42,009 nt of DNA. It comes from Actinomycetota bacterium (lineage in GTDB: Bacteria > Actinomycetota > Thermoleophilia > Solirubrobacterales > 70-9). This document shows positions 35,115-37,626 of the stretch, one piece after another. Each line of letters opens with the position of its first letter. Positions within the stretch are counted from its first letter, which is position 1. The position numbers and the translations under genes were made by a program. The notes beneath the pieces were generated by a model that had not been told where the DNA came from, did not search any database, and saw only the letters and a program-made list of their open reading frames with translations. Location of the stretch: positions 1 to 42,009 of the forward strand of contig VGBV01000008.1 in NCBI GenBank assembly GCA_016870325.1, written 5' to 3'.

Positions 35115-36074
35115 GTGCAAGGGGTGTTCGCCGACAGCGCAGCCGGCGGCGGGGTCCGCGTGGCCGTGATCGATATCGGCACCAACTCGACGCGGCTGCT
35201 GGTCGCCGACGTCGTCGACGGGCGCGTCCACGAGGTCGAGCGGCAGACGACCGTGACCAACCTCGGGCGCGGGGTCGAGCACACCGCGGCGCTCTGCACC
35301 GACGCCGTGGACGGAGTCTGCGACGTGATCGCGGCCTACAAGGCGCGCTACGAGGAGCTCGGCGCCCAGCGCGTGCTCGCGATCGCGACCAGCGCCGTGC
35401 GCGACGCCTCCAACGGAGACGCCTTCATCGCCGAGCTGCGCGAGCGCTTCGACCTCGACGCGCGCGTGCTGACGGGCGAGGAGGAGGCCCACCTGACCTA
35501 CCTCGGCGCAACCGTGCAGCGCCCCGACGAGGGGCCGACGCTGGTCTTCGACATCGGCGGCGGCTCGACCGAGCTGATAGTCGGCTCGGGCAGCGAGGTC
35601 GACTTCCACGTCTCGCTGCAGGCGGGGACGATCCGCCACTCCGAGCGCCACCTCTCCTCGGACCCCCCCGACCCGCACCAGCTCGAGGACCTGGCCTCGG
35701 ACGTGCGCCGGCTGGTCGAGGCCGCGATCGCCTCGCAGCGCGACTCCGGCGGCGTGCGTGCGATCGCCGTCGCCGGCACGCCGACCTCGCTCGCCGCGAT
35801 CGACCAGCAGCTCGAGCCCTATGACCCCTCGCGGGTGCACGGCCACCGGCTCGCCCTGCGCCCGATCCAGCACATGCTCTCGCGGCTCGCCTCGCTGCCG
35901 CTCGCCGAGCGCCTGCGCGTCCCCGGCCTGCATCCCGGACGCGCCCCGACGATCGTCGCCGGCGCCGTGATCATGATCCAGGTGATGCGCGCCTTCGGCC
36001 TCGATGAGGTCGAGGTCTCCGAGCACGACATCCTGCACGGCTCGGCGCTGTCGGCGGCGCTCGCGCCCGCCTGA
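35115..36074 (+). CDS. Exopolyphosphatase / pppGpp phosphohydrolase family
   Basis: A 319-residue Ppx/GppA protein of the ASKHA fold. 'VAVIDIGTNSTRLLVADV' is phosphate-1, 'LVFDIGGGSTELIVG' the phosphate-2 loop, 'TSAVRDASNG' and 'LTGEEEAHLTYLG' the intervening conserved blocks. It removes terminal phosphate from polyphosphate or (p)ppGpp. The short form without the C-terminal HD-like domain is typical of actinobacterial Ppx1. GTG 35115 is chosen because of the TAGAGT box 7 nt upstream and because residues encoded before it show no similarity to the family. It is alone on its strand. Confidence 0.95.
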   Translation: MQGVFADSAAGGGVRVAVIDIGTNSTRLLVADVVDGRVHEVERQTTVTNLGRGVEHTAALCTDAVDGVCDVIAAYKARYEELGAQRVLAIATSAVRDASNGDAFIAELRERFDLDARVLTGEEEAHLTYLGATVQRPDEGPTLVFDIGGGSTELIVGSGSEVDFHVSLQAGTIRHSERHLSSDPPDPHQLEDLASDVRRLVEAAIASQRDSGGVRAIAVAGTPTSLAAIDQQLEPYDPSRVHGHRLALRPIQHMLSRLASLPLAERLRVPGLHPGRAPTIVAGAVIMIQVMRAFGLDEVEVSEHDILHGSALSAALAPA

Positions 36075-36137: not shown

Positions 36138-36171
36138 TTGCGTTTCCGAAGTCGATCACCAATATTTGGTG
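36138..36171 (+). promoter_or_regulatory. Promoter and palindromic operator of a candidate RNA gene
   Basis: TTGCGT (36138-36143), a 17-bp spacer and AATATT (36161-36166) form a consensus-like promoter. The -10 lies inside the inverted repeat CACCAA-TAT-TTGGTG (36157-36171), a likely regulator site. This patch is markedly more AT-rich than its surroundings. No ORF on the plus strand follows. Confidence 0.6.
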
Positions 36172-36172
36172 G

Positions 36173-36358
36173 GTCGGGAGATCGCCATCGGGCCGGACGC
36201 TCGGGACGGCTCCCAACGCATAGGTCCCGGGCGCTATCGCCGAAAGGCGCCTTCCGTCGCCCGAGGCCGCGGCCCCCGAGACGAGACGACCCCTGCCCGT
36301 CCTGACGGGGCCATTTGAAGGGACCGGCCGCCACTCAACTGGCGGCCGGTCTCGTTTT
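36173..36358 (+). ncRNA. Candidate structured small RNA, unknown family
   Basis: Between the promoter and a strong terminator lie about 185 nt without a usable ORF. They fold into a rod: GGGCCG (36190-36195), CTCGGG (36200-36205) and ACGG (36206-36209) pair with CGGCCC (36270-36275), CCCGAG (36260-36265) and CCGT (36254-36257), leaving a symmetric 4x4 internal loop and a 2-nt bulge. Inside is CGCC-GAAA-GGCG (36238-36249), capped by a GNRA tetraloop. A further hairpin CCCGT/ACGGG precedes the terminator. The length is like 6S RNA, but I could not match its closing stem or bubble to 6S; it matches neither tmRNA, SRP RNA nor RNase P RNA. Confidence 0.5.
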
Positions 36359-36360
36359 CG
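36322..36360 (+). terminator. Intrinsic terminator with T-tract
   Basis: GACCGGCCGCCA / TGGCGGCCGGTC is a perfect 12-bp stem with loop CTCAAC, followed by TCGTTTTCG. It is the best classical terminator in the window and points to transcription on the plus strand. On the other strand it lies after the MFS stop at 36388 and may serve that gene too. Confidence 0.85.
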
Positions 36361-36387: not shown

Positions 36388-37626
36388 CTAGACGGGGACC
36401 GGATCGGCCCGGCCGGGGCCCGGCGCTGCCCGAGCGAAGGCGGTGCGGGCCGCGAGCCCGGCGACGATTCCCGACACCCCCGCCAGCACCAGCGCCGCGC
36501 GCGGGTCCAGCAGCTCGGAGAGCAGGCCCGCGAGCGGGGCGCCGATCGGCGTCGAGCCGAGGAAGACGATCGAGTACAGCGCCATCACCCGGCCGCGCAT
36601 CTCACCGTCGGCGGCGAGCTGCAGCGCCGAGTTGACGCTGGCGGCGAGCATCACGCTGGCCGCGCCCAGCGGCGCCAGCGCAAGCGCCTCGAGCGCAAGG
36701 GTCGGGGCGGTCGCCGCGAGCAGGGCGATGCCGCCGAAGGCGACCGCGGCGCCGGCCAGCAGGCCGTGGCTGATGCGCTCGCGCGCCCCCGTGACGAGAG
36801 CGCCGGCGATCGCGCCGACCGCCATCGCGCAGACGAGGGCTGCGTAGGCGGCCGGGCCGCCGTCGAAGGTGAAGCGCGCCAGCAGCGGCAGGATCGCGTG
36901 GAAGTTGAAGCCGAGCGTGCCGACCGCCCCCATCAGCGCCAGCGGTATCCAGAGCTCGGGGGTTGCGCGCACGTAGCGCATCCCCGCGCGCACGGCACCG
37001 GGCTCGCGTGGCGTGATCGCCGCCGGCCGCAACGCCTCGGTGTCCATCGTCGCCAGCGCGGCGATCATGACCACGTAGGTGGCGGCGTTGAGCGCGAAGC
37101 AGGGCTCGGGGCCGACGGTGGCGATCAGCACGCCGGCGATCGCCGGGCCGACGACGCGGGATGCGTGCACGAGCACGCTGTTGAGGCTGACGGCGCTGAG
37201 CACGCGCTCGCCGCCGACCATCTCCATCACGAATGCCTGGCGGGTCGGGTAATCGACCGCGTTGACGCAGCCGCGCAGGAAGACCAGCGCGAACACCATC
37301 CACGCCGCCAGCCCGGCGCTCAGCGCCAGCGCCAGCATCGCCAGCGGCGCCAGCATGTGCAGGCCCTGGGTCGCGAGCAGCAGCCGGCGCTTCGGCAGCC
37401 GGTCTGCGAGGAGGCCGCCGAACGCCCCCAGCAGCAGCATCGGCAGGAACTGCAGCGCGGTCGTCACCCCGACGGCGAAGCCGCTGCCGGTGAGCGCGAG
37501 GATCACCCAGATCTCGGCGACCATCTGCATCCAGTTGCCCGAGACCGAGACCAGCTGCCCGGCGAAGAAGCGCCGGTAGTTGGGGATCTGGAGGCTGACG
37601 AAGGAGCGGCTCAGTGCCTCGGTCAA
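36388..37626 (-). CDS. MFS transporter (EntS/MFS_3-like exporter)
   Basis: A 412-residue major facilitator with 12 predicted helices. 'PNYRRFFAGQLVSVSGNWMQ' at the N-terminus, 'GAFGGLLADRLPKRRLLLAT' (motif A) and 'DYPTRQAFVMEMVG' are typical of the EntS-like/MFS_3 exporters. Substrate is unknown. The start is a TTG at 37626 that overlaps the TGA of the MarR gene by two bases, with AGGAGGGGGG 8 nt upstream. Coupling to a MarR regulator suggests drug- or phenolic-inducible efflux. Confidence 0.9.
   Translation of the reverse strand: MTEALSRSFVSLQIPNYRRFFAGQLVSVSGNWMQMVAEIWVILALTGSGFAVGVTTALQFLPMLLLGAFGGLLADRLPKRRLLLATQGLHMLAPLAMLALALSAGLAAWMVFALVFLRGCVNAVDYPTRQAFVMEMVGGERVLSAVSLNSVLVHASRVVGPAIAGVLIATVGPEPCFALNAATYVVMIAALATMDTEALRPAAITPREPGAVRAGMRYVRATPELWIPLALMGAVGTLGFNFHAILPLLARFTFDGGPAAYAALVCAMAVGAIAGALVTGARERISHGLLAGAAVAFGGIALLAATAPTLALEALALAPLGAASVMLAASVNSALQLAADGEMRGRVMALYSIVFLGSTPIGAPLAGLLSELLDPRAALVLAGVSGIVAGLAARTAFARAAPGPGRADPVPV

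What the first reader, a model, noticed from the sequence alone, without database searches (positions are those of the whole stretch)
36138..36360. Orphan transcription unit that looks like a structured small RNA
A near-consensus promoter (TTGCGT-N17-AATATT) whose -10 is embedded in the palindrome CACCAATATTTGGTG is followed, about 150 nt on, by the strongest T-tailed terminator in the window. The sequence between has no ORF but folds into a long rod with a symmetric internal loop and a GAAA tetraloop. It sits between two convergent genes and is separate from both. It fits none of the universal RNAs I can recognise and could be a new regulatory RNA or a diverged 6S-type RNA.
Basis: partly seen in the sequence, partly recalled or inferred. 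Interest (0 to 1): 0.72.

Follow-up and report, generated by a model that had tools for sequence, protein, structure and literature searches.

The report
New conserved small RNA beside ppx
A roughly 186-nucleotide non-coding RNA gene next to the polyphosphatase gene ppx belongs to a previously uncatalogued small-RNA family, widespread in one order of soil actinobacteria, which probably regulates other genes through exposed cytosine-rich loops.

Summary
In detail: 36138-36360 carries a promoter, a structured non-coding RNA and an intrinsic terminator between convergent ppx and MFS genes. Comparison shows it is a real, conserved small-RNA gene. Covariance models find it in 91 of 183 Solirubrobacterales genomes, nearly always once, and in no genome outside that order among those sampled in class and phylum. 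Every one of 62 loci examined lies beside ppx or, where ppx is not directly upstream, beside a convergent thiamine-pyrophosphate enzyme gene. Pairs in the core hairpins covary (17 of 28 with double changes over 79 sequences). The model is 5' hairpin, CAUAG, hairpin P1 with a C-rich strand, hairpin P2 with an almost invariant ACCCCUGCC loop, terminator. No Rfam 15 family matches. It is not 6S: the same genome has a separate 6S candidate whose relatives pass Rfam's cut-off. It looks most like C-rich-loop riboregulators (6C/B11) but fails the 6C model. Trans-acting antisense regulation is my favoured mechanism but unproven; two crude target tests were negative. Many relatives' promoters carry a SOS-box-like GGAC-N4-GTTC element, absent from the window copy. 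New sRNA family, known kind.

The parts
35160..36074 (+). ppx/GppA phosphatase gene: conserved upstream neighbour of the RNA
   Evidence: Pfam PF02541, E 6.7e-55; ppx lies <300 nt upstream on the same strand in 51 of 62 loci
36138..36143 (+). -35 hexamer TTGCGT
   Evidence: TTG conserved in L002 and many members
36157..36171 (+). Palindrome CACCAATATTTGGTG containing the -10 AATATT (36161-36166); the palindrome was seen only in the window copy
   Evidence: -10 aligned to TATACT/AATACT/GATACT in relatives
36173..36358 (+). Small RNA, predicted start about 36173 at GUCGGGAG, end in the U tract
   Evidence: GTCGGG follows the -10 in many members; terminator at 3' end; CM hit to the core 36216-36315
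36173..36217 (+). P0: 5' hairpin starting at +1 (GUCGGGAG/CUCCCAAC)
   Evidence: 42 of 62 members fold the 5' end onto the stretch before CAUAG against 10-19 of 62 in shuffles; sequence not alignable
36219..36224 (+). Conserved CAUAGG; its GG begins P1
36223..36268 (+). P1 hairpin with inner stem CGCC-GAAA-GGCG and a C-rich 3' internal strand (family consensus GGCGCCUCCCGCC; here GGCGCCUUCCGUC)
   Evidence: covariation (family); window pairing
36271..36312 (+). P2 hairpin GGCCCC/GGGGCC
   Evidence: covariation and near-invariant apical stem
36289..36297 (+). P2 apical loop ACCCCUGCC inside the near-invariant ACG(U)ACCCCUGCCCGUCCUG block; proposed seed or contact site
   Evidence: alignments; used as the search pattern
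36322..36358 (+). Intrinsic terminator: 14-bp stem, then CUCGUUUU
   Evidence: equivalent hairpins in other members
36388..37617 (-). MFS transporter gene converging on the RNA (not a conserved neighbour)
   Evidence: Pfam MFS_3, E 1.9e-58

Best explanation
36173-36358 is an independently transcribed, intrinsically terminated non-coding RNA of about 186 nt: the copy, in this genome, of a small-RNA family that was found only in Solirubrobacterales and is kept beside ppx. Shown by sequence: conservation, promoter, terminator, helices, location. Inferred: it acts in trans as a riboregulator that shows C-rich unpaired segments (the ACCCCUGCC loop of P2 and the C-rich strand of P1) and pairs with G-rich ribosome-binding sites of mRNAs, blocking translation, as reported for the mycobacterial C-rich-loop RNA B11/6C. 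The 5' hairpin P0 and the terminator would protect the ends, with no need for Hfq.
For: Blast and CM homologues in relatives; 91 of 183 order genomes, nearly all single-copy; named hits include Solirubrobacter, Conexibacter, Paraconexibacter and Svornostia. Core helices: 97.4% of cells paired and 11 of 28 pairs with double changes on a MAFFT alignment not fitted to the structure; 96.8% and 17 of 28 over 79 sequences, both beyond all 500 shuffles and all slid controls. Sequence conservation sits in the unpaired C-rich segments and the P2 apical stem, while P1 varies with compensation. Promoter and terminator conserved. Single gene at a stable site: 51 of 62 have ppx directly upstream, and the other 11 have the TPP-enzyme gene adjacent. 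B11 represses targets through its C-rich terminator loop at G tracts near ribosome-binding sites (PMC12395582).
Against: No target shown. The loop complement GGCAGGGGU before start codons is not enriched (fewer matches than for the reversed control pattern in 10 genomes, and some of the matches are the RNA's own complement). The ppx 5' region shows no extra complementarity (mean z +0.65 and +0.49 over 51 loci). The P2 apical stem is invariant as well as the loop, which a pure antisense seed does not need. P1's CCUCCC is CCUUCC in the window copy. No transcript data.
Confidence: 0.5

Rival explanations
1. A protein-binding RNA: the near-invariant P2 hairpin is a binding site for a protein (RNA polymerase as with Ms1, or a ribosomal or RNA-binding protein), and the RNA sequesters or tunes that protein.
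For: Stem and loop of the P2 apex are both nearly invariant across the order; no enrichment of loop complements at start codons; Actinobacteria have an RNAP-core-binding RNA, Ms1, at a conserved locus (PMC9130861).
Against: No resemblance to the 6S/Ms1 rod; Ms1 synteny (HAD hydrolase/oxidoreductase) is not found here; C-rich loops are typical of antisense sRNAs.
Confidence: 0.25
2. A 3'-end product of the ppx mRNA rather than an independent gene: read-through from ppx ends at the shared terminator and a stable 3' fragment remains.
For: RNA downstream of ppx on the same strand in 51 of 62 loci.
Against: Own promoter with conserved -10 and start region, plus an upstream element in many members; the RNA is inverted relative to ppx in L156, L170 and L166 and distant from it in L191 and L182.
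Confidence: 0.1
3. A diverged 6S RNA.
For: Length about 186 nt, stable fold, own transcription unit.
Against: No Rfam 6S match at E up to 10; separate hairpins instead of one rod with a central bubble; separate 6S candidate in the same genome at G000:C182:187-345 (35 bits) with homologues above the cut-off in G185, G058 and G011, which also carry this RNA.
Confidence: 0.02
4. Only a terminator/attenuator region or chance GC-rich hairpins, with no RNA gene function.
For: GC-rich genome; z-score of the fold only -2.15.
Against: Order-wide conservation, covariation, independent promoter, absence at tight ppx/TPP junctions in other genomes.
Confidence: 0.02

Closest known systems
6C RNA (RF01066) / mycobacterial B11
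   Same: Actinobacterial sRNA with hairpins bearing C-rich unpaired segments plus a terminator; likely chaperone-independent pairing to G tracts. By a citation in PMC6789036, C. [quoted passage not shown]
   Different: About 186 nt against 75 model positions; no RF01066 match in the window or above cut-off in 28 order genomes; extra P0 hairpin; C-rich strand of P1 is an internal-loop strand; different conserved sequence (UACCCCUGCC, GGCGCCUCCCGCC); different locus.
Ms1 RNA (mycobacteria, Streptomyces)
   Same: Actinobacterial stand-alone RNA gene at a conserved locus.
   Different: Ms1 is 6S-like and binds the RNAP core; its synteny is HAD hydrolase/oxidoreductase, not ppx (PMC9130861).
6S RNA (RF00013)
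   Same: Size; stand-alone transcription unit.
   Different: No rod with central bubble; no CM match; a 6S candidate lies elsewhere in the genome.
CcsR1 (RF02791) and sX13 (RF02232) type C-rich sRNAs
   Same: Exposed CCUCC/UCCCC motifs in hairpins.
   Different: Proteobacterial families; neither was listed for the window RNA at E up to 10.

Membership tests
6S RNA (RF00013) | Covariance-model score above gathering threshold | tested here: not met
   No 6S hit at gathering or at E up to 10; homologues also none
6S RNA (RF00013) | Rod with closing stem, large central bubble and terminal stem | tested here: not met
   Covariation supports separate hairpins P1 and P2
6S RNA (RF00013) | Binding to sigma-70 holoenzyme | not testable with these tools
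   Needs biochemistry
6C RNA (RF01066) | Covariance-model score above gathering threshold | tested here: not met
   one sub-threshold hit in G104 lies at another place
6C RNA (RF01066) | Two hairpins with loops holding six or more C | tested here: inconclusive
   P2 loop UACCCCUGCC has six C, but the C-rich strand of P1 is an internal loop
6C/B11-like C-rich riboregulator (mode of action) | C-rich loop pairs with G-rich ribosome-binding sites | tested here: inconclusive
   Loop conserved, but no enrichment of its complement before start codons
Ms1 RNA | Conserved synteny with HAD-IB hydrolase / oxidoreductase | tested here: not met
   Neighbours are ppx and/or the TPP enzyme in all 62 loci; Ms1 synteny from PMC9130861
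Ms1 RNA | Binds RNAP core | not testable with these tools
   Needs RNAP immunoprecipitation
Trans-encoded bacterial sRNA (general) | Own promoter, intrinsic terminator, conserved structure, no conserved ORF | tested here: met

The most novel reading that the evidence does not exclude
The family is a stress-response (DNA-damage or desiccation) riboregulator of Solirubrobacterales, transcribed under a SOS-box-like GGAC-N4-GTTC control element that in Conexibacter also stands before a LigD-like end-joining gene, and it works with a sister C-rich RNA encoded beyond the neighbouring TPP-enzyme gene.
Probability: 0.2. Interest if true: 0.7.

Novelty: new member of a known kind. Interest (0 to 1): 0.52.

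Why it matters
Searches of the held literature found no paper on small or structured RNAs of Thermoleophilia. This is an order-wide, covariation-supported RNA family present in cultivable genera (Solirubrobacter, Conexibacter) and absent from Rfam 15, with a defined start, end, structure and candidate contact site, so it can be tested directly. It may show how soil actinobacteria without Hfq use C-rich riboregulators.

Tried and rejected
6S and Ms1. 6C membership. Weak P37, mir-1538 and CC1840 matches: far below the gathering scores and driven by the terminator hairpin. Control of ppx itself by pairing: no excess complementarity. Loop-complement sites at start codons: not enriched. Viral carriage: pattern hits in viral contigs show no CM match beyond 15.6 bits; no plasmid match. 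Phycisphaerae and Micromonospora pattern hits (L147, L153): short chance matches. Strict LexA control: lexA promoters in these genomes carry CGAACACATGTTCG-type boxes (28 of 30), whereas the sRNA element keeps one half and has GGAC instead of GAAC in the other, so LexA is possible but not shown. P0 covariation: the 10 sequences tried could not be aligned.

Full report
What is there. The window is contig C8 of a 2.5-Mb draft genome. Relatives with names place it in Solirubrobacterales, class Thermoleophilia; its family is that of 'Solirubrobacterales bacterium 70-9' (an inference from matching contig lengths). Between ppx (35160-36074, +) and an MFS transporter gene (stop at 36388, -) lie a -35/-10 pair (36138-36143, 36161-36166), a structured non-coding stretch and an intrinsic terminator (stem 36322-36351, U tract to 36358).

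It is conserved. A blastn search of 41 relatives gave a 73%-identical locus in G003 and shorter matches in other genera. The matches that are real homologues share promoter, core and terminator although flanking genes can differ. A covariance model of ten of them (R1) finds the RNA in 91 of 183 genomes of the order, usually once per genome. A model with both core hairpins (R2) finds no member outside the order among 300 class and 396 phylum genomes. A pattern scan of one genome for each of 84,980 species gives 80 stretches, nearly all in Solirubrobacterales or Thermoleophilaceae, including Solirubrobacter soli, Conexibacter arvalis, Paraconexibacter antarcticus and Svornostia abyssi. The window copy is divergent (45.9 bits with R1; 37.5 with R2).

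Structure. Individual folds and alignment agree on P0 (5' hairpin from +1), CAUAG, P1 (about 10 bp, inner 4-bp stem, C-rich 3' strand GGCGCCUCCCGCC), P2 (GGCCCC/GGGGCC, then a near-invariant apex around loop UACCCCUGCC) and the terminator. On a MAFFT alignment of 32 sequences, 97.4% of cells pair and 11 pairs show double changes; on 79 sequences 17 of 28 do; no shuffle reaches this and sliding the strands destroys it (the second alignment is fitted to the model and leans towards it). P0 varies too much to align, but 42 of 62 members fold their first bases onto the stretch before CAUAG, against 10-19 in shuffles.

Genomic setting. In 51 of 62 loci ppx lies directly upstream on the same strand; in the other 11 the gene for a TPP-dependent enzyme is adjacent, and in three of those the RNA is inverted between the two genes. 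In several order genomes without the RNA, ppx runs straight into the convergent TPP gene or into other genes, so the RNA is a discrete gene that is gained or lost. G034 keeps a decayed inverted copy (16 bits).

What it is not. No Rfam 15 family matches the window RNA or ten homologues at a meaningful score. A separate 6S candidate lies at G000:C182:187-345 (35 bits, below the cut-off), and homologues in G185, G058 and G011 exceed the 6S cut-off and fold as 6S-like rods. 6C is not detected above cut-off in 28 order genomes. Ms1 has a different neighbourhood (PMC9130861).

How it probably works. The most conserved segments are unpaired and C-rich. In Mycobacterium marinum the C-rich loop of B11 binds G tracts next to ribosome-binding sites, impedes translation and promotes mRNA decay (PMC12395582). 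I favour the same kind of action here (about 0.5). This is inference: the one pattern test for loop complements at start codons was negative, and ppx is not a pairing target. The equally invariant P2 apical stem leaves room for a protein ligand.

Regulation. In most members of family f2 (Conexibacter, Solirubrobacter, Paraconexibacter) and a few of f3, the promoter carries TGGACGNATGTTCGATTG overlapping the -35. The core pattern is several-fold commoner in 8 genomes than its reversed control. It resembles the lexA-promoter box of the same genomes, CGAACACATGTTCG, with one half altered to GGAC. In two Conexibacter genomes it also stands just upstream of a gene that reads like the phosphoesterase part of LigD (identification from the sequence motif, not tested against a family library). 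The window copy lacks the element and instead has the palindrome around the -10.

Verdict. A real new small-RNA family of a known general kind; mechanism plausible but untested.

Noticed in passing
L172:2356-2579 (-), L138:4216-4391 (-), L179:6920-7100 (+), also L209, L160, L190: A sister C-rich small RNA about 2 kb downstream of the family RNA: it shares GGCGCCUCCC and has a conserved GGACCCCCGACC loop and a terminator hairpin.
   Followed up: partly
Upstream of the RNA in f2 and some f3 members (e.g. L211, L139, L190); also before a LigD-like gene in L283 and L292: SOS-box-like element TGGACGNATGTTCGATTG (GGAC-N4-GTTC), different from the lexA box of the same genomes; regulator unknown.
   Followed up: partly
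L115 / G000:C182:187-345 (-): Candidate 6S RNA of this genome, 35 bits, below the Rfam cut-off; homologues in G185, G058 and G011 are above it. No 6S was detected in the f2 genomes tested.
   Followed up: partly
L300:1501-1573 (+): Sub-threshold 6C RNA candidate (40.1 bits, cut-off 47) in G104, at a place separate from the ppx RNA.
   Followed up: no
L344:2472-2584 (-): Decayed, inverted copy of the RNA just after ppx in G034 (16 bits).
   Followed up: no
L103 and L104 (G069): One genome carries two copies of the family RNA on different contigs (53 and 50 bits).
   Followed up: no
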